Part shown: positions 1,562-51,130 of the stretch, piece by piece | Position numbering within the stretch: the first letter of the stretch is position 1 | How the letters are laid out: every line of letters starts with the position of its first letter | Assembly (NCBI GenBank): GCA_023512835.1 | Contig: CM042087.1 | Location: 22,096,434 to 22,160,433, forward strand | From: Taxillus chinensis | Taxonomy: Eukaryota; Streptophyta; Magnoliopsida; Santalales; Loranthaceae | Direction: 5' to 3' | DNA length: 64,000 bases | The notes under the pieces: generated by a model | Databases searched by the model: none | Told to the model about the DNA's origin: nothing | The model's input: the letters and a program-made list of their open reading frames with translations, nothing else | Position numbers and translations under genes: made by a program

Positions 1562-1564
<3 letters not shown>

Positions 1565-2317: not shown

Positions 2318-2332
2318 CACACACACACACAC
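2318..2332. repeat. (AC)n microsatellite
   Basis: A short alternating CA tract directly follows a TATATATA tract within the CACTA-like element. Confidence 0.8.
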
Positions 2333-20174: not shown

Positions 20175-20394
20175 TGTTGGATCAAGCCCAGAATTTGGAT
20201 GATACTAATAAAACCTTATGTAATTTGATCTGAGACTTTTTTTGATTTTCATCTTGAGTTATTGCAGAAGATATGAACTTAATCTGGACCTACACTCGTG
20301 AGAGCAAAGCAAAGGACAAGATACATAATCCTGATCCGGACAAGAGTGAGTGTTATCAAATACTTGGTATCTAACCAAGTCTTTACTTCTTACA

Positions 20395-21371: not shown

Positions 21372-22876
21372 TGACAAACGGGTATTTCGTGAGTGAAACC
21401 CAAGTGAGGGTTAAGCTACTGTCGTTTAAATCCCTTCTCAAAATATTAATTCCCTTAACTATTGCTAAATAGAATAGCGACAAGAAAGGGGTCGATCCCA
21501 CAGATATTACCAAGTTATCTAGCTTTAACTCAAATCACCAAATTAATCTTGCTTAAAACAATGTCTCGGCAAACAAAATTGTGTTTTAAAATTACTTTAC
21601 TGAAAACAGAATTGCAATTGAAATAACTAAAAAACGTTGGATTTAGAATCAAGGATTAAGGCATCTAGGGTCACAATTTCACCTCCCTATGTTATCTCTG
21701 CTGGTTCATGGTATTAGGGCTGTCTGATTGAAAACATGCTAAACATAAGCCAAGGACAACAAATGGTCATTGAGGTCCTTTTAAGAGTTGTATGCTAGAA
21801 TGGTCATCTAAACACACAAACATGCAAAGCCAATAAATCATACTTGCAAAAGGATAATGATCACACCAATTACAAATAAGTTATGAATCTCAATCCGCCC
21901 CAGACTAGGGCTAAGAATACCAAGGTGTACATCCAAAGATAGAAATTAAGAACAGATTCATAAAACATGCAAAACTCAATCATCCAAACCCAATATTCAT
22001 AAACACAGCAAAGCAACAAGGGGGCTACATTGCTCCCCTAGATTATAAGAACTACTCACGCATGATTACAAGCAAAACCATAGCAGTAAAGCTAAACATC
22101 TTCTTCTAATCCACGCACGCAACAAGGCTTCAAATCCAGGCTCCAAAATCCGCGACGGGTGACTGCGACGGCTACGACGGCTGCTCTCCTAGGTCAAGGA
22201 GCAGCCTCCAAGTCGTGAAGCCTCTCTCTCCCTCTAAAAACATGTAAGGGGGTCTAGGTTACATAGCATGGGGCGTGGAGCCTCTATTTATAGAGGTTGG
22301 ATGGGCCTTGAGGTGTGTACCCTAGCCCATCTATCAAAACGACGTAGTTTTGATAAGTAACACTCCACACTTTAAAATCTCTATCTTCCATCTACAATTT
22401 GGACATGGGCCTTCAGGAACAAATGATCAGCATGGAAAAACGATAGGATCGGTTCAAAAATGTCTCTGCACGTCAATTTGCACGTGATATGGTGAATTCA
22501 CGTACAGCTCCAAATCAGCTCAAACTTCTCCCCAAGCTTCCTTGAATCCTGTAGAGGCCTGAGAACCAAAAATATGCTTGCACGTGAAATGGGTGAATTC
22601 ACGTGCAGCTCCAAATGCTCTGAAATTTCTGTGGTAGGTAGAGGACATCATTCTAAGCAACTTTTGTTCTTGCACACCAATTGTTTGAGGCCATCTACTA
22701 TATCAAAAGTGAGCTCTAAAATCTCCCAAAACAGCTTAAAAACGCATGTATTTGCAAATAGCATCTTCCTAGGGGTTAGAGCAAATATATATGATATATA
22801 AAGCAATAAGGCTCTAATCATGCTTTTAAACATCCTAAATAAACACTAGAATAACGGCATAAAATGCACGTTATCA
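21372..22876 (-). mobile_element. Solo LTR, Athila-like gypsy (minus strand)
   Basis: Termini TGACAAACGGG and GTTATCA are flanked by a perfect 5-bp duplication TTTAT (21367-21371 and 22877-22881) inside the copia LTR. On the minus strand it starts TGATAACG, like the Athila 3' LTR at 49373 (TGATAATG). It shares the CATTTTATGCCGTTAT block and a TATAAATAGAGG promoter box near 22285. With no interior left, it is a solo LTR formed by LTR-LTR recombination. Confidence 0.85.
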
Positions 22877-23070
22877 TTTATAAGTTTTAATCTGCTTCTA
22901 TTTTGTTGTACTTATCCTTTGATAATAAAACAAAATATTTCCACTATCTAGTTATCTTCCACATTGATTCTATCTCTTAAACAGATAAGTGTAGTGCCAA
23001 AGAGTGAGAGAAGAGTTTTCAATAAGAGCCTATTCAGCCCCCTCCCTCTAGGCTCTAAGGGACCAACAAG

Positions 23071-24400: not shown

Positions 24401-24662
24401 AGATCAGTTTATCAAAAAGGGTTCTTTGAGCAAATCTAAATCTAAATCTCAAAGGAGTATCTCTCCCAAGAAAACCCAAATGAAAGAAGCAACTGACACT
24501 GACAAAGTTAAGTCAACTTGGAAAGCTAAAGTTCCTAATAAAAGTAAATTCTGGAACTGTTGACACTACTGTTGTTTCTCCTAACCGCCCGAAACAAGTT
24601 TGGCACCAAAAGTGTAAACTGTTGTCTTGTAGGAGCATCTCTGGAATGCATTACCGGATCAC

Positions 24663-26142
24663 TTGAAGTTAAAGATCAATCAAAGCAAGTGGATCCTCGA
24701 TAGTGGATGCTCCGGACATATGACGGGTGATCAGTCTCTACTCGTTGAAGTTACTGACAAACGAGGCCCATCCGTATCATATGGGGACAACAATAAAGGT
24801 AAGACTGTGGGGTGTGTCACTTTAGCCAATGACTGTGTATCAATCACTAAAGTTGCACTAGTCGAAGGTTTGAAGCATAATCTGCTAAGTATTAGTAATT
24901 TATGTGACAAAGGGTTTACTGTTTCCTTTATGTCCAACACCTGCACAGTTAGGGATAACTTATCCGGATATGTTAAGTTATTTGGTTTAAAAGATGGGGA
25001 CATATACTCAGTGGTCTTAAGAAATAATTCTTCTGACCAAGTATGCTTTCTCACTAAAGCATCAGATGAAGAAAGTTGGCTATGGCACAAGCATTGCGTA
25101 CATTTAAATTTTAAAACCTTATCTAAATTAGCGTCGCTTGACTTAGTAAATGGTTTGCCCAAACATAAATTCTCCAGAGAGTCTCTGTAGAGAATGCCAA
25201 CTCGGTAAGTAGACCAAGCACAGCTTTAAGAGCAAATCCGTTAATTCAATAACTGCTCCGTTGCAACTTCTTCACATGGATCTTTGTGGTCCCATTTCTA
25301 TTGCTTCTCTGGCCGGTGCGAGATATACCCTTGTGGTTATTGATGATTTCACTAGGTATACATGGGTGATGTTCCTGAAATCAAAGGATCAAACCTTTGA
25401 ACATCTAATAGATCTCTTCAACTGGATAAGCAATTCACAAGGACTAAGCATCAAATGCATCAGAAGTGATCATGGTACTGAATTTGATTTTTCAGAAATG
25501 AGATCCTATTGTTCTGAACAGGGCATTCAACACGACTTTTCTACACCCAGGACTCCACAGCAAAATGGAGTTGCTGAGCATAAGAATCGCACGTTAGTTG
25601 AAGCTAGTAGATCAATGTTAGCAGGGGCAAAACTTCCTCTCAGTTTATGGGCTGAAGCTATGTCAACTACATGCTATGTTCAGAATAGAACTCTTAGAAA
25701 TAAGGTTACCATGAAAACACCCTATGAAATGTGGAGAGGCAGAAAGCCATCAATCTCTCATTTCAAAGCTTTTGGGTGTGCTTGCTACGTGTTAAACAAT
25801 GGGAAAGAGGCCCGGAGTAAATTTGAGCCAAAATCCGATGATGGGATCTTTGTCGGATATTGTTTACACAGCAAGGCTTATCATATTTTCAACCAAAAAC
25901 GTCTAATAGTTGAAGAATCTATCCATGTTGATTTTGATGAATCTAACCTTGATTGGTCGAGTATAGGATTTTCAAATTCAATTGCACAGGATCATATGGA
26001 CAGTACGATCGATTATTCTCAGTTCAGACATGTCCCTACTGCAACTCCTGATGAATCAACTAACACTAGTGAAGCAACAAGAGATGCTACTGATGATGCT
26101 GTAGAACCCTATTTTGTCCGGGTTGGACATACTAACCCCATT
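24663..26142 (+). pseudogene. Copia A protease and integrase part of pol
   Basis: 24663-25190 holds the aspartic protease motif ILDSGCSGHM (DSG) and the GAG-pre-integrase zinc region (LWHKHCVHLNFKTLSKL). After a stop at 25189, CRECQLGK follows. 25261-26145 is the integrase core with LLHMDLCGPI, RSDHGTEFD and TPQQNGVAEHKNRT, so the DDE residues are visible. It ends with the conserved copia tail FGCACYVLNNG and GIFVGY. The protein normally inserts element cDNA into the genome. The frame is broken by the stop at 25189 and the Tat/Ogre-like insertion at 26143. Confidence 0.85.
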
Positions 26143-33423: not shown

Positions 33424-34945
33424 AGTTGAGCCGCAGCCTTCATCATCAACTGCGTCTTCAGTAACCATGGAACCCTTGCCAGTTCTGAAGCAACTCCCAG
33501 AACACTTAAGGTATGAGTTCTTGGATTCACAGGGACGTTATCCTGTGATAGTGGTTGCGTCCTGAACGGTAGAAGAATGCAATCAGCTACTTGAAGTGTT
33601 AAGGAGGCATAAGCAGGCCCTGGGATGGTCTCTGGATGATATCAAAGGTATTAGTCCAGTGGTCTGCATGCATAAGATATTGATGGAGGAGTCTTATACT
33701 CCTACTGTGGAGCGTCAATGCAGGCTCAATCCTGCGATGAAGGAAGTAGTTGGCAAGGAGATTCTGAAGTGGAGGAAAGCTGGAATCATATATGCCATTT
33801 CAAACAGCTCCTAGGTTAGCCCTGTTCAAGTGGTTCCCAAGAAGGGCGGAATGACGGTGATACGCAATGGGAACAACAAGCTCATTCCGTCCCGCATAGT
33901 GACCGGGTGGCGAGTATGTATCGATTATCACAAGTTGAACAAGGCCACTCGTAAGGACCACTTTCCTTTATTGTTTATTGATCAAATGTTGATCATTTGG
34001 CTGGCTATCCATATTATTGCTTTTTGGACGGATATTCCGGATACAACCAGATAGCAGTTGCCCCGGAGGATCAAGAGAAGACCACGTTCACGTGTCCCTT
34101 TGGCACGTATGCTTTCAGTCATGTCGTTCGGTCTCTGCAATGCACCTACTACTTTCCAGAGGTGCATGATGGCAATATTTCAGGGGTTGGTAGAGGATAT
34201 TATGGAAGTCTTCATGGATGACTTCTCAGTTTTCGGTTCGTCATTCTCCATCTGCCTCAAGAATCTGGAAACGATATTGATCCGGTGCGAAGAGAAGAAC
34301 TTGGTTTTGAACTGAGAGAAGTGCCACTTCATGGTCAAGGAGGGAGTCGTCCTTGGGCATAAAGTGTCAGCAGCTGGGTTGGAAGTGGACAGAGCAAAGA
34401 TTTCCACAATTGAGAATCTACCTCCACCCACAAATGTGAAGGGCATCTGGAGCTTTTTGGGTCATGCGGGGTTTTACCGGCGGTTTATCAAAGACTTTTC
34501 CAAGATTGCCAAGCCCCTCAGCATGCTTTTAGCGAAGGATGTACCCTTCGTCTTTTCAAAAGAAGCCTTCAGGCATTGCTAGCTGTTGTCTTCGCTTGCG
34601 ACAAGTTCAGATCGTACTTGCTGGGCATGAAAGTGAAAGTTTATATTGACCATGCGGCCCTCAAGTACCTGTTTAGCAAGAAGGATGCTAAACCCAGATT
34701 GATCAGATGGGTTCTGCTTCTCTAGGAGTTCGACTTGGAGATTAAGGATTTGAAAGGCACATCCAACACTGTAGCAAATCATCTGTCAAGGCTAGAGTCG
34801 GGGGAAGGGAAGTCCAATGAAGCAACAACCTCTGATACCTTCCCTGACGAGCAATTATTTTCAGCAGAAGCTCACGTTCCATGGTATGATGATATTGTGA
34901 ACTTTCATGCATGTTCCTATATACCGACTGAGTTCACGTATTAGT
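33424..34945 (+). pseudogene. Athila-like gypsy pol: reverse transcriptase/RNase H part
   Basis: Contains Athila-type RT blocks: LGWSLDDIKGISP, WRVCIDYHKLNKATRKDHFPL, CPFGTYAF, MEVFMDDFSVFG (the DD catalytic pair), LEVDRAKI and [17 protein letters not shown]. An RNase H remnant follows ([12 protein letters not shown], then EIKDLKGTSNTVANHLSRLE). It is broken by several stops and frameshifts, many at places where relatives have Gln or Trp. The gag, protease and 5' LTR of this element are not present to the left. The left end abuts the family B LTR. Confidence 0.88.
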
Positions 34946-36056
34946 AAGAGAAGAAGTTTCTTGCTGATGTTCGAAAGTATATCTGGGATGACCCGTATCT
35001 ATTCAGGCGATGTGCTGATCCGATGATACGAAAATGTGTACTAGAAGAAGAAGTGGACAGTATCCTAAAGCATTGTCACTCATCTGACTATGCTGGCCAC
35101 TTTGAAGTTTAGAGAACCGTGGCTAAGATCTTGCAGAGTGGTTTTTACTGGCCCACCATGTTCCGCGACACGTATACCTTCATTAAGGCCTATGATAAGT
35201 GTCAGCGAGCAAGGGGGATAACACGGAAGCAAGAGATGCCCCAAATTGGAATTCTTCCAGTTGAACTCTTCGATATCTGGGGTATCGACTTCATGGGCCC
35301 ATTTCCACCATCAGAGGGGTTCTCATACATTCTACTGGCCGTTGATTACATATCCAAGTGGGTTGAAGCGATTCCCACTAGAAGGAATGACGCTCAAGTG
35401 GTTATCAAATTCTTGCATCGGAATATTTTTAGTCGATTTGGTACACCGCGAGCTATCATCAGTGCCGAGGGAAGTCACTTCTGCAACAAATAGTTCGAGA
35501 GACTGTTGACGAAGTATGGAGTGCAGCATAGGCGAACACTTGCATATCATCCACAAGAAAATGGGCTAGCTGAGGTCTCCCATCGCGAAATCAAGCAAAT
35601 ACTGGAGAAAATAGTGGGAGGCAACCGGAAGGTATGGTCTCAAAATTGGATGAGGCTCTATGGGCCTATCGGACTGCATATAAGGCACCTATAGGAATGT
35701 CTCCTTACCGCCTGTTGCATGGAAAGGCATGTCATCTGCCAGTAGAACTGGAGCACAAGGCGTTCTGGGCAGTTCAGAAGCTGAACCTGGATCCTACTGT
35801 TGCTAAGGAGCTCCGCTTGTATCAACTCAATGAATTAGATGAGTTCCGATACCATGCCTATGGAAGTGCAAGGTTGTACAAGGAGCGGACCAAAGCCGCG
35901 CATGACAGAAAGATAAATCCCTCTTTGGTTCAGCCAGGCCAACAGGTGCTGTTGTTCGATTCGCGACTGAAGCTTTTCCTAGGGAAGCTGAGATCAAAGT
36001 GGATGGGGCCATTCATAGTGACCCGAATGTTTCCCTATGGCAGTGTAAAACTGTAA
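34946..36056 (+). pseudogene. Athila-like integrase
   Basis: Order seen: zinc-finger region remnants, ILQSGFYWPTMFRDTY and CQRARGITRKQEMP, core GIDFMGPFPPSEGFSYILLAVDY, the second DDE block as AIISAEGSHFCNK, then YHPQENGLAEVSHREIK and ALWAYRTAYKAPIGMSPY. The end is LRSKWMGPFIVTRMFPYGSVKL. In the second block the usual Asp before the GSHFCN motif is replaced by Ala-Glu. Together with stops at about 35112 and 35492, this means no active integrase. The sequence AGCGCTTCATGGGAGGCAA at 36197, typical just after Athila pol, follows. Confidence 0.88.
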
Positions 36057-37154: not shown

Positions 37155-38886
37155 ATGGTGCGCACAAGGAAAGCCTGCCAAGGAGAAGGCAGCCCTGAAG
37201 CCTCTGCCACCTCTATGCCTTCGGAGTTGAGAGAAGCCGACACGATCTTTGTGGGAAATGTGCTTGATTGGGAGATCCTGGAGTCCTCCACGCTTGACTG
37301 GGTTGAAGAAGTTATGAGCAAGCTGCAGGCTCTTGGGCTGAGAAGGTTAGTATGCGCTCGCAGTGATCTATACTATCCTACCATGTTAGACTTTTACAAT
37401 TCAGTCTATGTCAATGAGGAAGATGATGAGATAATTGGGGAAGTTCAAGGTGTATTAATTTCTATTTTCCCTGCTATGTTGAGAGACTGCTTTAATCTGC
37501 CAAATCTTATGCATGAAATACCTGATTTGAACTTAGGAGATTATGGTGAAGCTTTACAGTATAATAAGGAATTTGGGAGACGTCGGAAATTTACTAAAAA
37601 CGGATTTCATGGGAAATACCGTTGCCTTGCCAATTTGGTAGGGAGGTGCTTACTGTTACAAACTAGTGGCGTAGACTCAGTCCCTAAGTCCCATTTGGAG
37701 TTTATGTTTTGCATAGATCGTCAGTTACACATCGGTTGGGCTGCTGAAAATTTTAAATTGTGGAAACGGGACATTCACAAATGCTTATATGGTAGACTAC
37801 TTAGCATGCTTCTGCAATATCAATACGGTCATCTTTGTGCTCAAGTAGTCCCCACTGTTTTGCCGGATAACCAACGATTATGAGTTCTCTATCCAGAGGG
37901 TGCCTTAGGAGTTAGCTACAAAGGCAAATGGGGAGATAGTATCCACGTCACTCCACAGCCTTCACGTCACAGCATGCATATAGAGTGACCCACTGAGCAG
38001 TTTAGGGACACCTCTACTCCCATGAACGCCCACCGACAACACATCTTCCAGTTAACTGCCATGTACATGCAGTTCAACGTTCATAAGGAGGAAGTCTACA
38101 ACTTCTTCCAAGGCGTCAGTGGCCAAGTTATCTGTGAAGCTGACGTTCTTAACTGAGCCTTCACTAATGGCCACATCACAAGACTTCAGCTGGAGGAGTT
38201 GCTCGAGTACATCTCTCATGACCAATAAGCAACCTCTCGTCCATCGGCCCGACCCTGGGAAGCCCCGGAGCTAACTCCTACTGCTTCTTATGAAGATTTA
38301 CAGAGGCAAACTGCTCAACTACAAGAGGCACAGGCGGAAACCGCTCAGGAGATCGGGCTACTGAAGAAAAATCAAACTCTCATCCTCAAGGAGCAGAAGG
38401 AAGTCAAAGGTCTGCTCGGCAAGATCTGGAAGGCCCTGGGGAAGAAGAAGAAAACTCCTACACCTCCTATGGTGGATCCATTTGCCGCGCCGTCACCTGC
38501 AGTACAGCAGCCTACTGCACATAGCGAAGAGACACCAGAGTATCCACAGTATCCACAAGAGGTGGAGCCCTACACATCTCCACCTGCCCCTCCAGCAGCT
38601 CCCGTTTATTTTACACCACTAGCAGGGCCCAGCTCTTCACAGGCCCTTGTTCCTTTAATCTGGCCATTGCAATGGTGGTCCAGCACTTCATCAAAAGCTC
38701 CCCAGGAAGACAACCTCGGGGAGCCCACATCTACATTCATCTTAATCCGGCCCTCTCCACTGCTGATGCCAAAGCTGCTTTTCAGCAGTTTACTCATGGA
38801 GAAACCTTGCAAGCACACTTTACGCGTGATTCCGAAGTCTTCACGTCATCCTCTTTGCAGCGTATCCTAGCTGATGAGTACTTATC
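37155..38886 (+). pseudogene. Athila-type 3' ORF, N-terminal and middle part
   Basis: 37155-37883 is open for 242 codons (MVRTRKACQGEGSPEAS to VVPTVLPDNQRL). It resembles the 'putative plant transposon protein' region found in the env-like ORF of Athila elements. After a stop it continues with RQHIFQLTAMYMQFNVHKEE, a Gln/Glu/Lys-rich likely coiled coil (38280-38440), and a Pro-rich linker (38460-38640) with frameshifts. It ends at ILADEYLS, where the Tekay-like element is inserted. The C48 domain resumes at 47426. Whether it acted as an envelope protein is unknown. Confidence 0.65.
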
Positions 38887-39624
38887 TGTAGTGACCCGTG
38901 TTTGCGGGTGGCCTTTTGAGTGGAAATTGTTGGGTTTTAAGGGATTTTTCTTTCCACAAACTTTGGCTAAATCATCTTGTATGTTGATGAGCAAGCAAGA
39001 GGCAAAGTTTGAGCCCAATAAGGAGTGCACGTGAGAATGCACGTGAGAATGGCTTTTCACGTGCAGTGATATTTTTGCATGGGAGCCTTCCTGATGTTGT
39101 TCTAAGGCTTGTGGAAAAATTCTAGGCCATTTGGAGCTGCACGCGAGAATGCACGTGAGATGGGCTTTTCGCGTGTAGGCATATTTTTGCATGGTTGTCT
39201 TCCTTTTGTTTTGCTGATGATTTCTTCCTAAAGGACCAAGTTCAAATAGTGAGTATTTTGGTGTGTATGGATGTGGGAAGGTCATAGCTTGTTCCATCAA
39301 AACTACGTCATTTTGATGCTGGGATTCACTTAATCAAAACTACGTCGTTTTGATGTTGTGTTGTCTATATAAGGAGGAGAAGCCCCTCTGTTTTAGGTTT
39401 AGGGTTTGTTGCTCCACCAGCCATCGGAGAGAGAGAGAGAGAGAGAGAGGGAAGGAGAGCTCCTGGTTGCTGCCGGGCGTCTTGCATGGGTCGTCGGTGT
39501 CTCGTGGGTGGACGGCGTTCGGTGTGGGAACAGAATATTGCTGTGTTGTTGCGTTTTACTTGAGGTAGGGGTTCTTTTCTGCTTGTCCTAGGGTTCTTAG
39601 GTAGAATTCGGTCTATACCGCTAT

Positions 39625-39626
<2 letters not shown>

Positions 39627-39660
<34 letters not shown>
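39627..39660. repeat. (AT)n microsatellite in Tekay LTR
   Basis: Alternating AT tract that is much longer here than in the 3' LTR (46454-46465). It explains part of the LTR length difference. Confidence 0.9.
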
Positions 39661-39662
<2 letters not shown>

Positions 39663-39976
39663 CCATATAGGTGTGATCTCCTATATGGATGTTGGCCTTC
39701 AATGGCATTTTGGTGTGATTCTGTTGTTGGGTGGTCAGTGCATGTTACATGTTCGATGAAATGCCTGAGTGAATATTGCTGTGTGTATATGCCTAGTACA
39801 TGTTTGATAATATGCCTGTGTGCTGGACTTGTGATTTGGTGTATGTATGCATCTTTGGGTGTTTGTTCTATTGCCTGAATGGCCGGGTTTGTGCACTTGT
39901 GAACGGGTGCACACCAAGTGTTTGGTTTCATGCTTGAGTGATCGTAGTGTATGTTGTATGCATGATTGTGGTATCT

Positions 39977-40113
39977 GGCCTGAAGAGGCGGTTAAATTAC
40001 TTTGCCTGAGAGGCGGTTAAACCAAGGGCCTGAAGAGGCGATTAAATTACTTTGCCTGAGAGGCGGTTAAATCAGTGGCCTGAAGAGGCGGTTAAATTAC
40101 TTGCTTGAGATGT
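39977..40113. repeat. 50-bp tandem array in Tekay LTR
   Basis: Units start GGCCTGAAGAGGCG at 39977, 40027 and 40077, each with two GGCGGTTAAA-type words. Homologous arrays lie at about 46793-46915 (plus), 53720-53845 and 60838-60935 (minus), with different unit numbers and decay. Confidence 0.9.
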
Positions 40114-40621
40114 GGTTTGTTAGCCAATGTGGCTGGGGCTGAGGTTATGCCCGTTTGTGTGGAATGCTTTATTTTCTTAATACTGTCACGTCACTACACC
40201 CTATGCACATGCATGTAGCCGCTAGGAGCATGGGAAGGGTTGGGGAGACTTGATCCCTACTGAGCTGTGGTTGCTCACCCCTCCTACTGTGTTTGCTTGT
40301 TTTCCAGGGACTTACAGGCATTAGGTGGATACACCAAGGTGGAAGACCATCTTCATTTTATTGTTCACTTCAGTAATGTACTTTTATAATTTATGTAACC
40401 CCAGGGGGGGAATGTACTAAGGGATTGAATTGTAGTAAGGAACATGGTTGGTTTGTGAACCTTTGATGTTTGAAATTAAATAAAGATGTGGCTTGTTTGA
40501 TTTATTGTAATTGTTAGTCTTGCTTGTGTGGCATCCAGTAATCCAACCCCGTTGCCCTCCATGTGGGTGAATGGGGAGTCACGTACCGGTTTCCCGAGTC
40601 GGAAATCCGGGCGGTGACGTA

Positions 40622-40633
40622 TGGTATCAGAGC
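40622..40633 (+). promoter_or_regulatory. Primer-binding site, Tekay-like copy 1
   Basis: TGGTATCAGAGC, two bases after the 5' LTR, complementary to initiator tRNA-Met. An untranslated leader without genes follows to 41032. Confidence 0.93.
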
Positions 40634-41032
40634 ATGGTCTAGTTGGCCTAGGGTAGTGGGCGGACCTGGTTATCCTAAGTCCTTTGGAGGAGCCTGGAGG
40701 GACATGCCTGCTCAACATGGTCCTCTTTGAGCCTCCAAGGTGTACTTAGGGTAGTCCGGTCTTGTGGTGGATTTGCATGCATTGGCATTATGGCACTAGT
40801 TGCATTTGCTGTGAATGTGTGCTAAACTGTGGAAATTGTGGATAACATGATTAAGTGTGAAATGTGCAACTCTGATTTGTTTGGCAATGTGTACTGAACT
40901 GTGAAATGTGATTGATACAATGTATGTGTGTAATGTCATGTGATAGTGGAATTGATCAGTGGGGTAGAGGTAGTGACGCGATAGATTATAAATTCGTTTT
41001 GACGTTTGTGTTTCTTACTTTGTGTAGTAAGA

Positions 41033-42330
41033 ATGCCGCCGAGGAGAGAGACACGTGCGTCCGGGGCAGTAGCGGATGAGTCATCTGCCCATGAGGGTCC
41101 GGGTGCGGGACAATCCATTGGAGGGCATGCGTTGTTGCTGGCACAGCTACGAGAAGCCATCCGGCTGGAAGTACGAGAGCTACGGGAGGGAATCTGGCAG
41201 GAGGTTCGGGAGGAGGTGCGCCGCGAGATGACAGCACAGCAGGTGGTGCCACCACCACCACCAGTAGGGGAGCTGCCTCGTGAGCATGAGAGTTCGCTGG
41301 GTGGTGTACCGACTCGTGCAAAGGATGACGTGGTGACACAATTTCGAAAGGAACAACCTCCGCGATTCAAGGGGGAAGGTGATCCCGTGGTAGCTGAGTA
41401 GTGGTTAAGGCAGATCGAGCATGTGTTCTCTTTTCTCCTGCCCCGGGAGGAGGATAAGGTGCGACTGGCCATTCGGCAGCTGGAGGGGGATGCTTTGGAG
41501 TGGTGGACGAGTGTCGCGGGGAGCCGTGCGGTGCAACTCATGCTTTGAGAGGAGTTCTTGCAACTCTTCCATGATGAGTTCTTCCCGGAATCAGTGAGAT
41601 GGCAGAAGAGGGAGGAATTCGGCAGCCTGAAGCAGGGATCCAGGACGGTACCTGAGTATGAGCGGGAGTTCTGGAGCTTAAGTAGGTTTGCTCCTGAGAC
41701 TGTGGCAAGGGAGGACCTGAAGGCCCACAAGTTCACCTTGGGCCTTAAGCCAGCCCTTAGGCAGAGGGTGGCAATTCTACGCTTGAGGACCTATGCTGAG
41801 GTTATGGAGACGGCCCGTATAACTGAGAGAGAGTTGGATGATGGGAGGCAGGCCCATCAGGGTCGCCAGTTGCAGAGTGGGCCTGATCGAGATGCATGGC
41901 CCAAGAGGCTCAAGACGGAGGAGAGAGATAGCAGTTCTTTTCGCGATCGGGGTCGGACATCTGTGAACCCCGGGAGGTTCACCTTTGGCGGCGAAAGACA
42001 GGGTGGTCCATCTGGGGGTCTACCTAGCGGTTGTCAACTGCTTGTGGGGAGCAAGGGTCACTTCAAGGGGGAGTGCCCCAAGAAGGACCGGCGATGCAAC
42101 AACCGTGGATGAGAGGGCCATTTGCGCCGGGTTTGCGGGAGTGGCAACGGGGGAGCAGGGGGCGTGGCATCCGGCGTGAGGAGTGATGCTAGCTTCCGTG
42201 CACCAGCCGAGAGACCGGCTCGTCGGTGGCGGGCCAGCCAGGCAGGATCCAGTCAGACCCGACCTCAGGGGAGGCCAGAGCGACAGCAGGCTGATGCTAG
42301 AGGCAGTCAGGGCGGGAGCCTCCCAGTGAG
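41033..42330 (+). pseudogene. Tekay-like gag, copy 1, with stops
   Basis: Starts MPPRRETRASG at 41033. The capsid core includes RFKGEGDP, WLRQIEHVFSFLLPREEDKVRLAI, GDALEWWTSV and the RTVPEYEREFWSLSRFAPE block. A zinc-knuckle remnant follows (GHFKGECPKKDRRCNNRG, then EGHLRRVC). In-frame stops occur at 41399 (TAG where copy 2 has CAG) and 41546 (TGA where copy 2 has TGG). Near 42330 the reading jumps from the gag tail directly into the end of the protease region. Confidence 0.88.
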
Positions 42331-43250
42331 GATTGGCTTATGGCTTTCCAGGCCAAGATCGACTATTACCGGCGGCGTGTATCCTTCGTGTCACCCGCAA
42401 GAATCTCTTGTACCCTGCAAGGGGGGTGGGATCGTGAGGTGAGTCGAGTCGGGCCAGTGTTGGACCAATGGGGTGCCATTACCCACAGGTTGGCAGCCCT
42501 GACCTTTGCTGAGGAAGGGAAGGTGGAAAAGAGGGTGTGGCCCGCTATTGTGGACCAATTTCAGGATGTTTTTCCTGAAGAGTTGAGGAGTTTGCCACCT
42601 AAGAGGAGTGTGGAGTTCACCATTGAGTTGGTGCCGGGGACGGGTCCGATTTCCCAAGTAGCGTATCGTATGGGGCCAGCGAGTTGAGGGAGCTTCAGAG
42701 GCAAATCGAGGAGTTGGTGGGCCAGGGGTATATCAGACCGCGTACCTCACCTTGGGGTGCTCCGGTGCTCTTTGCTAAGAAGGCAGATGGCACGCTTCGT
42801 CTCTGCATCGACTACAGGAAGCTGAATTCAGTGACTGTGAAGACCAAGTATCCGTTGCCTCGGATAGATGACCTGTTTGACCAATTGAGTGGGGCCTAGT
42901 GGTTTTCCAAGATAGATTTACGGTCGGGGTATCACCATCTCAGGGTTAGGGAGGAGGACATCCCTAAGACGGCTTTTCGGTGCAGGTATGGGCATTATGA
43001 GTGGGTAGTGATGCCTTTCGGGCTCACTAATGCGCCAGCGGTGTTCATGCATTTGATGAACCAGGTCTTTGCTCCATACTTGGATTCGTTTGTGGTGGTG
43101 TTTATTGATGATATCTTGGTGTATTCCAAGACCGAGAGGGAGCATGTGGAGCATTTGGCAACAGTGTTGCACACCTTGAGGGACTAGCAGCTGTATGCTA
43201 AGTTTAGCAAGTGTGAGTTTTGGCTATAGGAGGTTCACTTTCTTGGCCAT
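42331..43250 (+). pseudogene. Tekay-like reverse transcriptase, copy 1; protease deleted
   Basis: Begins with [19 protein letters not shown], which in copy 2 lies about 95 residues after the DTG protease site, so the catalytic protease segment is missing here. RT blocks follow: [65 protein letters not shown] and [12 protein letters not shown] (catalytic DD). A frameshift lies near 42687. TAG stops at 42897, 43185 and 43227 replace CAG codons (compare copy 2 at the first two). Confidence 0.9.
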
Positions 43251-45404
43251 GTGGTGTCAGCTGAGGGAGTTAGGGTGGACCTAGCCAAGATTGAGGCTGT
43301 GGCATCGTGGGCGAGGCCAACCAATGTTTTTGAGATCCGTAGCTTTGTTGGCTTAGCTGGGTACTATCGTCATTTTGTAGAGGGCTTCTCGCGTTTGGCG
43401 GCTCCTATGACAGCGTTGACTAGGAAAGGAGTGAAGTTTGAGTGGACGGACAAGTGCCAGCAGGCGTTTGGGACTCTCAAAACCCGTTTGACCACTGCAC
43501 CTGTGTTGAGGTTGCCTAGGGAGGATATTCCGTATGAGGTATTTTGCGATGCGTCCAGGGTTGGTTTGGGGTGTGTGCTTATGCAGGAGCACAGTGTGGT
43601 AGCCTATGGATCGAGGCAGCTGAAGCCTCACGAGCAGAATTATCCTACCCATGACCTTGAGTTGGCGGCTATCATCTTCGCGCTGAAGAGTTGGCAGCAC
43701 TACCTCTTGGGGGAGAAGTTTGTAGTGTTCTCGGATCACAAGAGCCTTCAGTACATCTTTACTCAGAGGGACTTGAATCTGAGACAGAGGAGATGGGTGG
43801 AGTATCTGCAGACCTTTGACTTTACCCTTGCCTATACCCCAGGCAAGGGCAATGTTGTGGCTGACGCGTTAAGCAGGAAAGGGAAGGTTGAGGTGGCCGT
43901 GAGGGAGTGGAAGCTGATGGAGCAGTTGGCCATGTTACAGTTGCAGCCTGTGGTTGATGATGGTAGGACAGTGCTGGGTCTTATGGTGGTTATACCTGAG
44001 TTATATCAGCAAGTCCGGGAAGGACAGTTGGGTGATATTGAGTGTGAGGTTCTCCGTGCCCGTATTGAGGCTGGCGAACTATCGGAGGACTGGGCAGAGG
44101 GTCCTGAGCATGAGTTGTCCTTTCAAGGGCGTTTGGTAGTAGCTTCTTCTCTCAGGGATGAGGTGATGAGGGGGTTTCATCAATCTAGAGTTGCTGTGCA
44201 TCCAGGGGGCACGAAGATGTACCATGCGCTTCGGGGGCATTTCTGGTGGCCTGGGATGAAACGTGACGTCACTGCTTTCGTTTTGAGGTGCCTCACTTGT
44301 CAACAAGTAAAAGCTGAGCATCAGCGGCCGGCAGGCATGTTACAGCCGTTGCCAATAGCAGAGTGGAAGTGGGATCACATCGCAATGGACTTTGTGACTG
44401 GTCTTCCACCCACCACTGGGAGGAAGGATATGATTTGGGTGATTGTGGATCGACTCACCAAGTTGGCCCATTTTCTAGCGGTCCATGAGCGGGATTCCAT
44501 CGGGGTTTTAAGTCAACTGTATGTGAACGAGATTGTGCGACTGCATGGGGTGCCATCGTCGATTGTGTCCGACAGAGACTCGAGGTTCACTTCCCGTTTT
44601 TGGGAAGGCTTGCAGGAGGCTATGGGAACAAAACTTAACTTGAGTACGGCCTTTCACCCTGAGACTGATGGCCAGACGGAGAGGATGAATCAGACCTTGG
44701 AGGACATGTTGCGGGCCTGTGTGTTAGATTTCGGGGGTTCGTGGGCAACTCACCTTCCTTTGGTGGAGTTTGCCTACAACAACAGGTTTCAGGCGTCTAT
44801 TGGGATGGCTCCTTTTGAGGCGTTGTATGGCAGACTGTGCCGATCACCATTGTGTTGGACTGAGGTAGGAGAGGCCGCTCTCTTGGGACCACAGATGGTT
44901 CAAGAGGCTACCGAGAAGGTTAAGTTGATTCGTCAGCGTTTGTTATCAGCTCAGAGTCGGCAGAAATCTTATGCGGATCGGCGGCGGCGACCTTTGGAGT
45001 TTTCTGTTGGTGATCATGTGTTTCTTCGTGTTTCTCCACGTCGTGGACATCGACGGTTTGGGCGAGGTTCCAAGCTATCTCCGCGGTTTATTGGTCCTTT
45101 TGAGATTCTGGCTCGTGTGGGGCTCGTGGCCTACCGGTTAGCGTTACCACCGCGGCTGAGTCGAGTGCACAACGTGTTTCACGTGTCCCAGTTGAGGAAG
45201 TATCACCCTGACCCCACCCATATGATCGATTGGGGGACATTGGATGTTGAGGATGACATGTCCATTGTTGAGGCCCCTATCCGTATACTCGACCGGCGGG
45301 AGAAACTATTGCGTGGTCGTGCTATTCCTTTGGTTCGCGTGCTGTGGCAGCACCGTGGCATTGAGGAGGAGACTTGGGAGCGTGAGTCCTTGATGCGGGA
45401 GTAG
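43251..45404 (+). CDS. Tekay-like RNase H-integrase-chromodomain ORF, copy 1
   Basis: An unbroken 717-codon frame. Order: RT thumb ([20 protein letters not shown]), RNase H ([56 protein letters not shown]), the integrase HHCC finger ([18 protein letters not shown] to [11 protein letters not shown]), the DDE core ([41 protein letters not shown]), a GPY/F-type segment ([10 protein letters not shown]) and a C-terminal chromodomain-like tail ([20 protein letters not shown]). The integrase would insert cDNA, and the tail would steer it to histone marks. It is the 3' part of a pol frame whose upstream portion is broken, so it is not a stand-alone host gene. A TAG at 45402 replaces a CAG found in copy 2. 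Confidence 0.9.
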
Positions 45405-45697
45405 CATCCAGAGTTGTTCGCGGACGACCAATCTTAAAGGTGGGAGGTGGCTGTTAGCCAATGATAGTAACATGTTTTCTTGTTTATGATTTGGTGTGTA
45501 TTGTCCTTGTAGACATGTGTTTATATTTGTGAGTTTGAAATTGGTATTTGTGACATGTGTATGTGGCATTGTTATGTGCTATTGTGTGCTGTGTGCGATG
45601 TATGACCCATTTGGGTGTTGTGGCTTGCCGTGCGGCAAATGGGTAACTTGTGTTTGTTTTCCTTGCATTTTGTTTTTTTTCGAGGACGAAAAGTCTT
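45405..45697 (+). other. Tekay-like 3' untranslated spacer, copy 1
   Basis: G/T-rich non-coding sequence between the integrase end and the purine tract. It ends with TTTCGAGGACGAAAAGTCTTAAG, whose GAGGACGAA word also occurs in reverse at the homologous place in copy 2 (near 54805 and 55130). Confidence 0.7.
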
Positions 45698-45710
45698 AAG
45701 GGGGAGAGGA
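45698..45710 (+). promoter_or_regulatory. Polypurine tract, Tekay-like copy 1
   Basis: AAGGGGGAGAGGA directly before the 3' LTR start TGTAGTGACC. Confidence 0.9.
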
Positions 45711-47425
45711 TGTAGTGACCCGTGTTTGCGGGTGGCCTTTTGAGTGGAAATTGTTGGGTTTTAAGGGATTTTTCTTTCCACACACTTTGGCTAAATCATC
45801 TTGTATGTTGATGAGCAAGCAAGAGGCAAAGCTTGAGCCCAATAAGGAGTCCACATGAGAATGCACGTGAGAATGGCTTTTCACGTGCAGTGATATTTTT
45901 GCATGGGAGCCTTCCTGATGTTGTTCTAAGGCTTGTGGAAAAATTCTAGGCCATTTGGAGCTGCACGCGAGAATGCACGTGAAATGGGCTTTTCGCGTGC
46001 AGGCAAGTTTTTGCATGGTTGTCTTCCTTTTGTTTTGCTGATGATTTCTTCCTAAAGGACCAAGTTCAAATAGTGAGTATTTTGGTGTGTATGGATGTGG
46101 GAAGGTCATAGCTTATTCCATCAAAACTACGTCGTTTTGATGCTGGGATTCACTTAATCAAAACTACGTCGTTTTGATGTTGTGTTGTCTATATAAGGAG
46201 AAGCCCCTCTATTTAAGGTTTAGGGTTTGTTGCTCCACCAGCCGGAGAGAGAGAGAGAGAGAGAGAGGGAAGGAGAGCTCTTGGTTGCTATCGGGCGTCT
46301 TGCGTGGGTGGTCGGTGTCCCGTGGGTGGACGGCGTTCTGCGTGGGAACAGAATATTGCTGTGTTGTTGCGTTTTATAGGTAGGGGTTCTGTTCTTGCTA
46401 ATCCCTCTCAGTCCTAGGGTTCTTAGGTAGAATTCGGTCTATACCTTCTATTATATATATATATAAATCCATATAGGTGTGATCTCCTATATGGATGTTG
46501 GCCTTCAATGGCATTTTGGTGTGATTATGTTATTGGGTGGTCAGTGCATGTTACATGTTCGATGAAATGCCTGAGTGAATATTGCTGTGTGTATATGCCT
46601 AGTACATGTTTGATAGTATGCCTGTGTGGCTGGACTTGTGATTTGGTGTATGTATGCATGTTGGGTGTTTGTTCTATTGCTTGAATGGCTGGGTTTGTGC
46701 ACTTGTGAACGGGTGCACACCAAGTGTTTGGTTTTATGCTTGAGTGACCGTGGTGTATGTTGTGTGCATGACTGTGGTATCTGGCCTGAAGAGGCGGTTA
46801 AATTACTTTGCCTGAGAGGCGGTTAAACCAGTGGCCTGAAGAGGCAGTTAAATTACTTTGCCTGAGAGGCGGTTAAATCAGTGGCCTGAAGAGGCGGTTA
46901 AATTACTTGCTTGAGATGTGGTTTGTTAGCCAGTGTGACTGGGGCTGAGGTTACGCCCGTTTGTGTGGAATGCTTTATTTTCTTAATACTGTCACATCAC
47001 TACACCTATGCACATGCATGTAGCTGCTAGGAGCATGGGAAGGGTTGGGGAGACTTGATTCCAAATGAGCTGTGGTTGCTCACCCCTCCTACTGTGTTTG
47101 CTTGTTTTCCAGGGACTTACAGGCGTTAGGTGGATACACTAAGGTGGAAGACCATCTTCATTTTATTGTTCACTTCAGTAATATACGTTTATAATTTATG
47201 TAACCCCAGGGGGGAAATGTACTAAGGGATTGAATTGTAGTAAGGAACATGGTTGGTTTGTGAACCTTTGATGTTTGAAATTAAATAAAGATGTGGCTTG
47301 TTTGATTTATTGTAATTGTTAGTCTTGCTTGTGTGGCATCCAGTAATCTAACCCCGTTGCCCTCCGTGTGGGTGAATGGGGAGTCACGTACCGGTTTCCC
47401 GGAGTCAGAAATCCGGGGCGTGACA
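45711..47425 (+). repeat. 3' LTR of Tekay-like copy 1
   Basis: Starts TGTAGTGACCCG and ends GGGGCGTGACA, followed by the TTATC target duplication. It shares all modules with the 5' LTR, including palindromes near 46126 and 46158 and a TATATAAGG box near 46190. It differs mainly by microsatellite length and scattered substitutions. Confidence 0.93.
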
Positions 47426-48019
47426 TTATCTGCCGATGACGTTGACTTATTCTACCGTACGATGCGACACGTGGTGGAGGCTGAGCCCAATGATTATCCT
47501 ATGACTCAGTCTACCTCCATCATGTTGTGCGAGATATATGAGCAACCTTTAGAGGAGCACATTTTCCGCCGGCGGATGACTAAAGCAACAGAAGGACATC
47601 ACTCTTGGCACCAGGTCCATGAGGTTCTTATACCGGTCCTCCTTGATCAACACTTTGTACTCTTGCAGTTGGACCTGAGTATGGGCCATGCAGTCCTCTA
47701 TGACACGAGCCAAGCCCATGGGTTTTCCACACGAAAGAAGAAATTGGTGCATGGCTTTCTGCGAAATGTTAAGGATGCCCTATGCAAAGAAGGACTACTA
47801 CACTCAAAGCTGCCCCTTGTTCATTTCAATGAGATGGAGCTTCCCCAACAGCCTGATCAGTTTAGCTGTGGGATTTTTGTTTGCTACTACATGATAGCTC
47901 TACTCCAGTGGCGTGAAGCTTGGGCACTAACTGGCGAAACGTCCACTGAGTTCGTGGCCCGGCTGAGGCGTATGGTGGCCCACATCATCTTCTTCTTTAG
48001 CGTACCCACCAACCGGTAA
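47426..48019 (+). pseudogene. C48 (Ulp1-like) cysteine protease domain of Athila 3' ORF
   Basis: Continues the ORF interrupted at 38886 (ADDVDLFYRTMRH onward) and stays open to the stop at 48017-48019. It shows the C48 order: His in LLDQHFVLLQLDL (codon at 47651), Asp in AVLYDTSQ (47702), Gln in PQQPDQF, and Cys in QFSCGIFVCYYM (47867). These residues form the catalytic centre of SUMO proteases, which cleave SUMO after the diglycine. The domain looks intact apart from the Tekay insertion, which cuts it from its N-terminal part, and upstream frameshifts. C48 domains are known in some Mutator-like and CACTA transposons. Here the position is between Athila pol and the 3' LTR. Confidence 0.75.
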
Positions 48020-49357: not shown

Positions 49358-49370
49358 AAGTGTGGGGGGA
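49358..49370 (+). promoter_or_regulatory. Polypurine tract, Athila-like element
   Basis: AAGTGTGGGGGGA, two bases before the LTR start TGATAATG. The word GAGGACAAGCAAAGGTTCAAG just before it is typical of this position in Athila-type elements. Confidence 0.8.
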
Positions 49371-49372
49371 TT

Positions 49373-51130
49373 TGATAATGAGCATTTATGCCGTTATCCT
49401 ATGCCATATTTAGGGTGTTTTAAAGTATGTTTTGAGCCTATTTGCATGGTATTTTGCATATATTTGCTTTAACCCCTAGGAAGACTTTGTTTGGTGTATA
49501 GTTGTACTTTTTGAGTGTTTTTGGCAGGTTTTGGAGCAACTTTTTCCCACACACCTTGGCTAGATCACTCCATACACTCAAGAGGAAGCTATAGGAAGAA
49601 GATGAAAGCAAAATAAGAGTAAAATGAAGGTGCACGCGAAAAGGTGTTTCTCGTATGTAAGGAGTTTGATGCGTGGATACTTTCTACAAGTTCTACTAAA
49701 ACTTTGGAGCAAATTTGGGCTGATTTGGAGCTGCCCGCGAAAAGGACCTTCTCACGTGCATTCTCGTGGGCAGGCAGTTTTGAGCTCCAAATGATGTGTT
49801 TTGTTGTTTTAATCATTTTCATCTAAAGAACTTGGGTCAAATTTGGTGTAATGTTGGGTCTCTAACGTCCCATAGATCAATCCCACATCGGTTAGGGCGA
49901 ACATTGAGGTCGTCCTAATGAGGAGGCTCATGTGCACCTTGTCACAACGCGTTTTAATGGGTCGCGGCCCGTTAGAAACAAATCCGTGCGGGCTGCGGCC
50001 CATGGGTGGGTGCGTGAGTGCCAAAGCGGACAATATTGTGATAGTGAGTGCCCTGGCCGAGGTCCAACATGTAGTTTGAGTTTTATTGAGCCTAGAACGT
50101 TGAATAGTGTCACTAACCAAAACGACGTCGTTTTGGCTGTGACCACGCTTATAATTAGGGCACACCTTTTGTTACCCTAATTTGGCCCACTAAATCTTAT
50201 AAATAGGGGGCTTGGGAGGCATTGTAAATCATCCTTGGTTAGACAATCTGATCTGAGTTCTGAAGAAGAGCTATAGCCATTGCTGAAAGATTGGATTGTC
50301 CTTTGGCGGCACTAGAGTTGGAGAGGAGTGATTTTGGGCAGCAGATGCCGGAGTCTTTGGAGGCCGGAGTCCTGGTTCATCTTGGGTTCTTCCTTTATTG
50401 TCCCGGTACTGTAATCATATTCTTTCTTGTAATTTCTATTGCTTTCATTATGACTATGGGGTAGTTTTGTTAGTCTAGGGGAGCAATGTAGCCCCCAATA
50501 TGTTGTAATTAGTTTGGTTTATGGTTTATTCTTGTTCAAGGAAATGAAATTCAGTTCTTGTTTAATTCACTTGTATGAAAGCAAATGCCTGATTTATGCA
50601 TGATTAGGTAATCTTAGCCCTTGTCTAGGGTGGAACACTAGTGAATTAGGTTTAATGTTGTATGATGGACCAAGTCTACAACTATTAGATTGTTTATCTA
50701 CCTTGATCACTTTTATTCACATGGGCTAAATGGGATAAAAGCCTTAAATCTATCTTAGCATGGACCAAATGTAAGATAGGTAGGAGATAATCAACATGAA
50801 CATGAATTAGAGCTTAAATCAAGAACAAGTGCCATAATCCAAATTATTACAATCCATTGGGTGGTAAACATTGTGACCCTAGATCCTTAATCATTGAAAT
50901 CTTTATACCAACTGCTTGCCAACAATCTGATTTATTCACTTTTACTTTAGCTATTCAGAATTCAAACTATTTGCACAACTTAAATCATATTTCTAGACAT
51001 GGACCAAATCTGTTAGTTTAGTGATCATCTGTCTTTCAGCAATAGTTCCTTCCCTGTGGGATCGATAATCGGGGTTTCAATACTCCACTTATTACTTGGC
51101 CAGTGCACTTGCCGCATACCTATACAATCA
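49373..51130 (+). mobile_element. 3' LTR of Athila-like element
   Basis: Starts TGATAATGAGCATTTATGCC and ends ATACAATCA, about 1.76 kb. It contains CGCGAAAAGG hairpin words (49635 and 49733), a perfect 20-bp palindrome at 50117-50136 (CCAAAACGACGTCGTTTTGG) and a TATAAATAGGGGG box at 50198. It ends with GGGATCGATAATC-type sequence also seen in the solo LTR. The 5' LTR of this element is absent, so no target duplication can be tested. Confidence 0.75.

What the first reader, a model, noticed from the sequence alone, without database searches (positions are those of the whole stretch)
37155..48019. C48 (Ulp1-like) protease cassettes in two unrelated retroelement lineages
The Athila-like 3' ORF ends in a C48 domain with His, Asp, Gln and Cys positions visible (47651, 47702, about 47850, 47867). 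A second cassette of the same layout (coiled coil, Pro/Ser linker, C48 motifs) lies at 3558-4755 on the minus strand, directly inside the polypurine tract and 3' LTR of a copia element. Known so far: C48 genes ride on some Mutator-like and CACTA DNA transposons, and Athila ORF3 is usually called env-like. An LTR element supplying its own deSUMOylase could counter SUMO-dependent silencing or alter integrase partners. That role is inference.
Basis: partly seen in the sequence, partly recalled or inferred. Interest (0 to 1): 0.75.

Follow-up and report, generated by a model that had tools for sequence, protein, structure and literature searches.

The report
Protease gene shared by plant retrotransposons
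In this plant genome two very different families of copy-and-paste mobile DNA carry, in the slot usually called 'envelope-like', related versions of one gene ending in a SUMO-protease-type domain that selection has kept intact in many copies, which suggests it helps the elements rather than being an accidental passenger.

Summary
Cassette b (3561-4800, minus) sits just inside a Ty1/copia PPT and 3' LTR; it is broken and lacks the catalytic Gln. Other copies in the same 521-Mb genome show the cassettes are element parts: L018 and L028/L030 repeat gypsy pol, N-domain, C48; a young pol-less LTR element carries most of the ORF; L029/L031, L012 and L027 repeat cassette b with its LTR; a third copia family with Sirevirus PPTs has the same layout, one copy with a 1059-aa open frame. 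The N-terminal domains are homologous across the two superfamilies (hhalign 99%, 4e-20). C48 is under purifying selection (median dN/dS 0.17; catalytic residues kept in 13 of 13 copies). Best reading: the 'env-like' ORF of Athila-type and SIRE-type elements is here a shared nuclear Ubl/SUMO protease, probably anti-silencing. Enzyme activity and role are untested. My paper searches showed no report of it.

The parts
33982..36053 (+). Outer Ty3/gypsy (Athila-type) pol, broken into pieces: RT 33982-34312, RNase H 34414-34722, integrase 35113-35490, integrase C-terminal part 35574-36053
   Evidence: Pfam (no Pfam match for 35574-36056); tblastn to L018 and L030/L028 in collinear order
37155..37880 (+). 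N-terminal (Transposase_32-like) domain of the 3' ORF
   Evidence: No Transposase_32 match of its own; aligns to the L018 ORF, which matches Transposase_32 at 33 bits (below its cut-off of 45)
38229..38867 (+). Coiled-coil-like and Pro-rich middle of the 3' ORF (frame broken)
   Evidence: read from the sequence, no coil program run
38887..47424 (+). Nested Ty3/gypsy element that splits the 3' ORF: LTRs 38887-40618 and 45711-47424 (94.3% alike), iMet-type PBS 40622, gag 41549-42109, RNase H/integrase ORF 43230-45401
38882..38886 (.). Target-site duplication TTATC, left copy
47425..47429 (.). Target-site duplication TTATC, right copy
47429..48019 (+). C48 (Ulp1-like) protease domain to stop; His 47651, Asp 47702, Gln 47849, Cys 47867
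   Evidence: Pfam; aligned with three other copies
49362..49372 (+). Polypurine tract before the 3' LTR of the outer element
   Evidence: Read
49373..51116 (+). 3' LTR of the outer element (right end truncated; 49860-50069 has no match in the compared LTRs)
   Evidence: 82-84% to the LTRs of the young element in L030/L028
4387..4800 (-). Cassette b, coiled-coil-like piece
   Evidence: 65-69% aa to L012, L027, L029
3742..4206 (-). Cassette b, N-half of the C48 domain
   Evidence: 68-70% aa to L012, L027, L029; no Pfam match alone
3561..3809 (-). Cassette b, C-half of C48 with Cys; catalytic Gln codon is CTG (Leu)
   Evidence: Pfam 2e-6
3417..3425 (-). PPT (TTGGGGGAG) of the copia element with cassette b
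98..3414 (-). 3' LTR of the copia element with cassette b, interrupted (run of N 2712-3211 and unmatched DNA to about 1187)
20175..23069 (+). LTR of the same copia family starting a separate element; unmatched or other LTR DNA at about 21352-22892; iMet-type PBS at 23071 (1 mismatch)
24633..26142 (+). Copia Pol_BBD, gag_pre-integrs, integrase and SH3 of that element; 24339-25958 is 86% nt to L031, which runs into cassette b in L029
   Evidence: Pfam

Best explanation
The C48 cassettes are the extra 3' ORF (the 'env-like' slot between pol and the 3' LTR) of two LTR-retrotransposon lineages: an Athila-type Ty3/gypsy group and a Sirevirus-like (SIRE) Ty1/copia group. In both, the ORF encodes one kind of protein: a Transposase_32-like N-terminal domain, a Pro/Ser/acidic linker with a coiled coil, and a C-terminal Ulp1-type cysteine protease. 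The gene moved between the superfamilies or was taken up twice from one source. SHOWN: presence, position, sharing across copies, homology of both ends, intact catalytic residues and purifying selection. INFERRED: the N-domain and coil bring the protein to element chromatin or to its own complexes in the nucleus, and the protease removes SUMO (or another ubiquitin-like tag) from host silencing or transcription factors, favouring transcription of the element. Odds: about 0.9 for the anatomy and sharing, about 0.75 that an active Ubl protease is what is selected, about 0.45 that relief of silencing or transcriptional repression is its use.
For: Anatomy: Pfam hits for pol and C48 in order. Gypsy copies: L018 has RT-RH-IN, then a 674-aa open frame with Transposase_32 (33 bits, cut-off 45) and C48 (5.6e-14); L030/L028 repeats pol pieces at 43-85% aa, then N-domain 44% and C48 60%. 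A pol-less LTR element (LTRs 98.9% alike over 1504 bases, TSD GGCTC read, tRNA-Asp-type PBS) carries most of the ORF including the whole C48 domain, so the ORF moves with the LTRs. Copia copies: L031/L029 RVT_2, RH, N-domain, cassette b, LTR; L012 and L027 share cassette b and LTR with L029 at 84-93% nt in the main matches; family F3 with gag, IN, RVT_2, RH, then a C48 ORF of up to 1059 aa. Of 20 loci of 9.9 kb, copia RH lies upstream on the same strand in 8, downstream on the same strand in 0, on the other strand in 1. In a systematic sample of 20 further C48 hits, 8 have it 3.6-5.4 kb upstream. Homology (pairwise hhalign, small alignments): N-domains 99.3%, 3.8e-20 and 99.1%, 4.9e-19; C48 97.7%, 1.4e-12. 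Selection: F3 C48 dN/dS under 0.5 in 73 of 74 defined pairs of 78, median 0.17; His/Asp/Gln/Cys kept in 13 of 13; gypsy C48, window vs L030 copy, 0.09. Role: Ulp1/SUMO status controls Ty1 transcription in yeast (PMC8585004, passages); Ulp1-bearing VANC (KIU) genes of MULEs are described as causing hypomethylation of related elements (PMC13317346, passages).
Against: No transcript, protein or enzyme data. C48 enzymes can act on other ubiquitin-like tags (recalled). In yeast, Ty1 was derepressed by loss of Ulp1 or of SUMO conjugation, so the sign of the effect is not settled. The copia b copies L029, L027 and L012 carry TAG at the catalytic Gln codon and the window has Leu there, so that branch amplified without an obvious active site. 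Six of 78 F3 pairs have dN/dS of 0.5 or more over the whole ORF, up to 0.86, as expected for decaying copies; the N-domain reaches 1.10 in one pair. Of six gypsy C48 pairs five have saturated dS, so only one ratio could be had. No second LTR was found for the L018 element, and the F3 element in L022/L032 shows only a partial LTR pair (95.6% over 790 bases) and no TSD. Protein searches with the gypsy C48 piece (89 candidates) and the F3 C48 region (993 candidates) found no relative at E<=1e-3, although the same database holds plant reverse transcriptases: the ORF is fast-evolving or narrowly spread. 8 of the 20 sampled C48 hits showed nothing upstream. A SUMO-interaction-like motif was seen in F3 only, not in L018.
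Confidence: 0.6

Rival explanations
1. The C48 genes are passengers: host or DNA-transposon C48 genes that inserted into, or were transduced by, LTR elements and are copied without benefit.
For: C48 genes are known to ride on Mutator-like elements (PMC13317346; PMC2836005). Window copies of both cassettes are broken. The four b copies seen lack the catalytic Gln.
Against: Same position and layout in diverged copies of two superfamilies; purifying selection with all four catalytic residues kept in 13 of 13 F3 copies; no MULE or CACTA transposase domain in the ORFs that were scanned by Pfam, a part of all ORFs.
Confidence: 0.15
2. The protease works inside the element's own life cycle: it processes or deconjugates Gag, integrase or the pre-integration complex, or promotes nuclear entry, rather than acting on host silencing.
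For: The gene is carried beside pol in the element; coiled-coil-like stretch and a short basic stretch in the F3 ORF. It would equally explain selection.
Against: Nothing here ties it to Gag or integrase; elements of both lineages without such an ORF are known (Diaspora, PMC1142308; SIRE extra ORF in 74% of elements, PMC6317226).
Confidence: 0.25
3. The ORF is an envelope-like gene and the C48 resemblance is incidental.
For: Position between pol and 3' LTR, where ORFs are called env-like (PMC2829016, PMC6317226).
Against: Pfam C48 above cut-off with the catalytic set. No transmembrane search was run here.
Confidence: 0.03
4. Two independent captures of related host genes, not one gene passed between copia and gypsy.
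For: C48 and N-domains are only 23-27% alike between lineages in the profile alignments; the C48 tree has long branches and does not resolve their order.
Against: Both ends of the protein are homologous in the same order.
Confidence: 0.4

Closest known systems
Athila/Calypso/Diaspora group of Ty3/gypsy elements (3' env-like or extra ORF)
   Same: tRNA-Asp-type PBS a few bases after the LTR; extra forward ORF between pol and 3' LTR; a sunflower Athila 3' extra ORF also matches Transposase_32 (PMC11728184, passages).
   Different: That sunflower ORF (487 aa) is reported with Transposase_32 similarity only, and the paper's main text has no 'Ulp1' or 'SUMO'; here the ORF continues into a C48 protease.
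Sireviruses (SIRE/Maximus lineage, Ty1/copia)
   Same: F3 family: 3-4 exact AGGGGGAG tracts after the ORF in 9 of 12 loci, terminal AGGGGGAG-AT/TG at the 3' LTR in 8 of 12, iMet-type PBS, about 14 kb between the two LTR matches, ORF in the linker (features from PMC2829016).
   Different: The linker ORF is described as env-like and heterogeneous (PMC2829016, PMC6317226, passages); here it ends in C48. Family b has one PPT and TGGGGGAG instead of AGGGGGAG.
KIU/Kaonashi genes of Vandal-type MULEs (Ulp1-bearing VANC)
   Same: Element-borne protein with an Ulp1 domain, described as inducing hypomethylation of related elements; the function of the Ulp1 part is said to be unknown (PMC13317346, passages).
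Ginger1 DNA transposons with C-terminal Ulp1
   Same: C48 domain attached to mobile-element proteins (PMC2836005, passages).
   Different: There it is fused to a gypsy-integrase-like transposase in TIR elements; here a separate ORF in plant LTR elements.
Orchid Ty3/gypsy elements with an AlkB RNA demethylase
   Same: An LTR element with a captured enzyme in an extra ORF, said to help its expression (PMC12786077, passage; PMC9289625, listing with abstract start only).
   Different: Different enzyme; one superfamily.

Membership tests
Peptidase C48 (Ulp1) | Pfam PF02902 above curated cut-off | tested here: met
   Window a 36.4 bits, L018 52.9, L022 50.3, window b C-half 28.3; cut-off 20.7
Peptidase C48 (Ulp1) | His, Asp, Gln, Cys at the catalytic positions | tested here: met
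   4 of 4 gypsy copies and 13 of 13 F3 copia copies; Gln not met in 4 of 4 b copies: Leu in the window, stop in L029, L027, L012
Peptidase C48 (Ulp1) | Cleavage of SUMO | not testable with these tools
   No bench data; single-sequence structure model too poor to use (pLDDT 41)
Athila (Ty3/gypsy, OTA) | Gypsy order RT-RNase H-integrase followed by a forward 3' ORF | tested here: met
   Window, L018, L030/L028
Athila (Ty3/gypsy, OTA) | PBS complementary to tRNA-Asp a few bases after the LTR | tested here: met
   L028 minus 490 (2 mismatches, beside the LTR end) and L029 5939 (1 mismatch; LTR there not delimited) to a recalled PBS pattern; rule from PMC1142308. No such PBS in the window, whose outer element has lost its 5' end
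Athila (Ty3/gypsy, OTA) | RT groups with reference Athila RTs in a tree | not tested
   No labelled reference set in hand; one search lists 120 of 7991 RT hits at 68-77% identity, without lineage names
Sirevirus (SIRE) | Multiple AGGGGGAG tracts clustered before the 3' LTR | tested here: met
   F3: 3-4 tracts in 9 of 12 loci, none after the stop in L023, L013, L014. Not met by family b: 0 of 4
Sirevirus (SIRE) | Terminal AGGGGGAG 10 bases before the LTR with AT/TG junction | tested here: met
   F3 8 of 12; family b 4 of 4 have TGGGGGAG-AT/TG, one base off
Sirevirus (SIRE) | iMet-type PBS | tested here: met
   L032 next to the 5' LTR end, window 23071 with 1 mismatch
Sirevirus (SIRE) | RT tree placement with SIRE references | not tested
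   No labelled references in hand
KIU/MULE-borne ULP genes | Lies in a Mutator-like element with its transposase | tested here: not met
   LTRs, PBS, PPT and retroelement pol found instead; no MULE domain in the ORFs scanned, a part of all ORFs

The most novel reading that the evidence does not exclude
The 'env-like' genes of both plant LTR lineages once called endogenous retroviruses (Athila and SIRE) include one homologous gene, exchanged between Ty3/gypsy and Ty1/copia, that encodes a nuclear deSUMOylating protease used to keep the elements transcribed. In these elements the slot is an anti-silencing gene, not an envelope gene.
Probability: 0.35. Interest if true: 0.9.

Novelty: new variant of a known kind. 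Interest (0 to 1): 0.72.

Why it matters
What the 'env-like' ORFs of plant Athila and SIRE elements do is an open question. If one version is a selected SUMO-type protease shared by both superfamilies, the question becomes a simple enzyme assay plus expression work. It would also show gypsy and copia elements holding the same accessory gene, and extend the MULE KIU theme of element-borne Ulp1 to LTR retrotransposons. In practice, some 'Ulp1-like' gene models in plant genomes may be retrotransposon genes.

Tried and rejected
Protein-database searches with the gypsy C48 piece and the F3 C48 region gave no relatives; the RT search shows plants are in that database, so this is not a lack of plants. 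The first of these could only see proteins of about 108-343 aa, shorter than the full ORFs. Comparison with solved structures: no hit for the L018 or L022 ORFs, weak yeast Ulp1/SENP hits for the window domain (E 0.015 and worse). A single-sequence structure model was too poor to search with. Tree of C48 domains: long branches and one row read in a bad frame (L010, 27 X) leave the order open; L018 did not group with the other gypsy copies there (the gypsy label needs two changes), so I draw no origin from it. I considered that the C48 ORF belonged to the nested gypsy element; rejected, because it lies outside that element's LTRs and TSD. I considered stop-codon readthrough in family b, since changes after the shared TAG look constrained in two of three pairs (4 non-synonymous to 6 synonymous; the third pair 8 to 6; one-sided p 0.016 for 4 of 10 under an assumed neutral share of 0.76); repeated CAG-to-TAG change by deamination is an equally simple cause, so I leave it open. 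Genome-wide numbers are limited: one search scored 150 of 4308 first-look candidates, and no whole-genome DNA or protein count could be had.

Sampling notes: the 20 loci were picked mainly for long open frames, so they are biased. The 20 were taken at about every seventh row of the 150, passing over rows already fetched (26 of 150). My note gives 122 unfetched rows; the right figure is 124. It also gives the N-domain count as 17 of 20; with L012, whose hit belongs to cassette b, it is 18.

Full report
WHAT WAS CLAIMED.

CASSETTE A. Pfam finds Peptidase_C48 at 6.5e-9 in window 47306-48019. The catalytic codons are at 47651 (His), 47702 (Asp), 47849 (Gln) and 47867 (Cys). Upstream on the same strand are gypsy RT, RNase H and integrase pieces, 33982-35490. 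The span contains an inserted Ty3/gypsy element, 38887-47424, with 94% alike LTRs, its own gag and pol, and the duplicated target TTATC. The C48 domain lies outside it. In locus L030 the same gene runs unsplit across that point (88% nt to 37631-38887 and 82% to 47426-48757; the two matches meet with six bases in common). The window copy is dead: stops in the 37155 frame and the split.

THE CASSETTE A ELEMENT. L030/L028 (neighbouring stretches of contig C4) holds RT-RH-IN collinear with the window at 43-85% aa by piece, then integrase C-part (57%), N-domain (44%), middle (49%) and C48 (60%). L018 (contig C6) holds RT-RH-IN at 49-75% by piece, then a 674-aa open frame with Transposase_32 at 33 bits (below its cut-off of 45) and C48 at 5.6e-14; to the window its N-domain is 31% and its C48 29%. 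Inside L030/L028 a young LTR element (LTRs 98.9% alike over 1504 bases, TSD GGCTC) carries a tRNA-Asp-type PBS and the 3' ORF from within the N-domain onward; none of the window pol pieces matched inside it. Its LTR matches window 49373-51116, which places the window element's 3' LTR and PPT 1.35 kb after the C48 stop. So this ORF moves with these LTRs. The tRNA-Asp PBS close behind the LTR is the rule given for Calypso and Diaspora (PMC1142308, passages). No LTR pair was found for the L018 element: L029 and L018 share no such repeat, and the stretch before its PBS found no second copy.

CASSETTE B. C48 is found at 2e-6 in 3561-3809. The other half, 3742-4206, has no Pfam match alone but is 68-70% identical to L012, L027 and L029. 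The frame is shifted between the halves. After the stop comes TTGGGGGAG-AT and then TGTTGG at 3414, the LTR start. The same LTR opens the copia element at 20175-23069, followed by an iMet-type PBS, Pol_BBD and integrase. L031/L029 (neighbouring stretches) holds both in one place: copia integrase and RVT_2 in L031; then, in L029, the RNase H end, N-domain, coil-like piece, C48 b and LTR. L012 and L027 repeat cassette b plus LTR. In L029 that LTR ends about 130 bases before the tRNA-Asp-type PBS of the L018 element, so the copia element appears to be inserted in the gypsy 5' LTR; that is inference.

A THIRD FAMILY. C48 scored over cut-off in 150 of 150 scored places of the own genome, from 4308 first-look candidates. 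Sixteen of the 20 stretches share DNA as one further copia family, F3: L011-L017, L019-L027, with L012 and L027 also holding cassette b. In 8 of 20 the copia RNase H lies 4.0-4.9 kb upstream of C48 on the same strand; in 0 of 20 it lies downstream on the same strand; in 1 (L028) on the other strand; L016 has gypsy integrase 4.5 kb downstream on the same strand. An N-domain lies upstream on the same strand in 18 of 20 (17 without L012, whose hit belongs to cassette b; none in L009 and L027). In a systematic sample of 20 further hits, 8 had copia RNase H at that distance, 2 the SIRE-type N-domain, 1 a weak gypsy integrase match, 1 an N-domain on the other strand and 8 nothing. In L022/L032, gag, Pol_BBD, integrase, SH3 and RVT_2 are followed by RNase H and a 1059-aa open frame ending in C48 at 3.5e-13; only a partial LTR pair (95.6% over 790 bases) and no TSD could be shown there. 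After the stop, 9 of 12 F3 loci have three or four exact AGGGGGAG tracts and 8 of 12 the AGGGGGAG-AT/TG junction; L023, L013 and L014 have none. These are the published Sirevirus marks (PMC2829016, passages). Family b has one tract, one base off, in 4 of 4 loci.

ONE GENE, TWO SUPERFAMILIES. Pairwise profile comparison of the N-domains gives 99.3% and 3.8e-20 (gypsy vs F3) and 99.1% and 4.9e-19 (gypsy vs b); C48 gives 97.7% and 1.4e-12 (gypsy vs F3). The alignments are small (1 to 5 rows). Order and position match. Whether the gene passed between lineages or was captured twice from one source is open; the C48 tree does not settle it, and L018 fell apart from the other gypsy copies in it.

SELECTION. 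Across 13 F3 copies, C48 dN/dS is below 0.5 in 73 of 74 defined pairs (4 of 78 undefined; highest 1.00), median 0.17; medians elsewhere are N-domain 0.23 (52 pairs, highest 1.10), linker 0.40, coil-like part 0.13, second linker 0.22; whole ORF 0.24, below 0.5 in 72 of 78. All four catalytic residues are kept in 13 of 13 and in 4 of 4 gypsy copies. Gypsy C48, window vs L030: 0.09; the other five gypsy pairs are saturated. Family b, N-half of C48: window vs three copies 0.11-0.14, among the three 0.16-0.30. Against this, all four b copies lack the catalytic Gln: Leu in the window, TAG in L029, L027 and L012. Family b may depend on others in trans, or be dying.

MECHANISM. The layout (N-domain, coil-like part, linker with a basic stretch and, in F3 only, an acidic SUMO-interaction-like motif; motif rules recalled) suits a nuclear protein. 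In yeast, Ulp1 and SUMO conjugation control Ty1 transcription (PMC8585004, passages), with loss of either raising Ty1 RNA, so which way a retroelement's own protease would push is not given. Ulp1-bearing VANC genes of MULEs are described as causing hypomethylation of related elements (PMC13317346, passages). I therefore favour relief of host repression, at about 0.45, over a use within the element's own particle or integration complex. Enzyme activity and target are untested.

KNOWN OR NEW. Ulp1 on MULEs and Ginger elements is known. A Transposase_32 match in a sunflower Athila 3' ORF is known, without Ulp1 or SUMO in that paper's main text. SIRE 3' ORFs are reported in 74% of elements and as heterogeneous. 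My ten paper searches showed no paper that puts C48 in Athila or SIRE elements. They cover open-licence PMC papers, several listings were capped (for example 20 of 343 and 20 of 57), and I read listings and passages, not whole texts, so an account elsewhere is possible.

Noticed in passing
L029 4308-4499, L027 1496-1687, L012 7693-7884 (minus): Three copia b copies share TAG exactly at the codon of the catalytic Gln (window: CTG), yet the codons after it still look constrained in two of three pairs. Readthrough, trans-dependence or repeated CAG-to-TAG deamination could each explain it.
   Followed up: partly
L030 4318-8999 with L028 1-1999: A young LTR element (LTRs 98.9% alike) with a tRNA-Asp-type PBS, no pol match and most of the C48 ORF, inserted in the integrase of a related Athila-type element: a non-autonomous carrier of the protease gene.
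   Followed up: partly
window 53185-61870 (minus): A second copy of the nested gypsy family, opposite strand, LTRs 96.7% alike, about 91% to the first copy in pol.
   Followed up: no
L009 (G000:C191:89800-99700): The best C48 hit of the genome is a 1092-aa uninterrupted frame on a small 209-kb contig, with no retroelement or N-domain match; it looks unlike the plant copies and may be a contaminant (fungal-looking, by eye only).
   Followed up: no
L002, L003, L004, L008, L010: A fourth C48 group (Transposase_32-like N-domain upstream in L010) for which no carrier element was identified.
   Followed up: partly
window 26093-29301 and L018 5520-8135 (minus): The same DNA lies after copia integrase in the window and, reversed, just after the C48 ORF of L018; its nature is unknown.
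   Followed up: no
window 5006-5294 and 5474-5762: Inverted repeat (91%) of a piece related to the gag region of the gypsy family, ending where the match of cassette b to L029 stops.
   Followed up: no
window 26627-26822: Array of 8-base units (CTCGAAGC type).
   Followed up: no
window 12013-14666 (+) and 8496-8897 (+): DnaJ and DnaJ_C domains of a DnaJ-type gene, and a hAT dimerisation domain.
   Followed up: no
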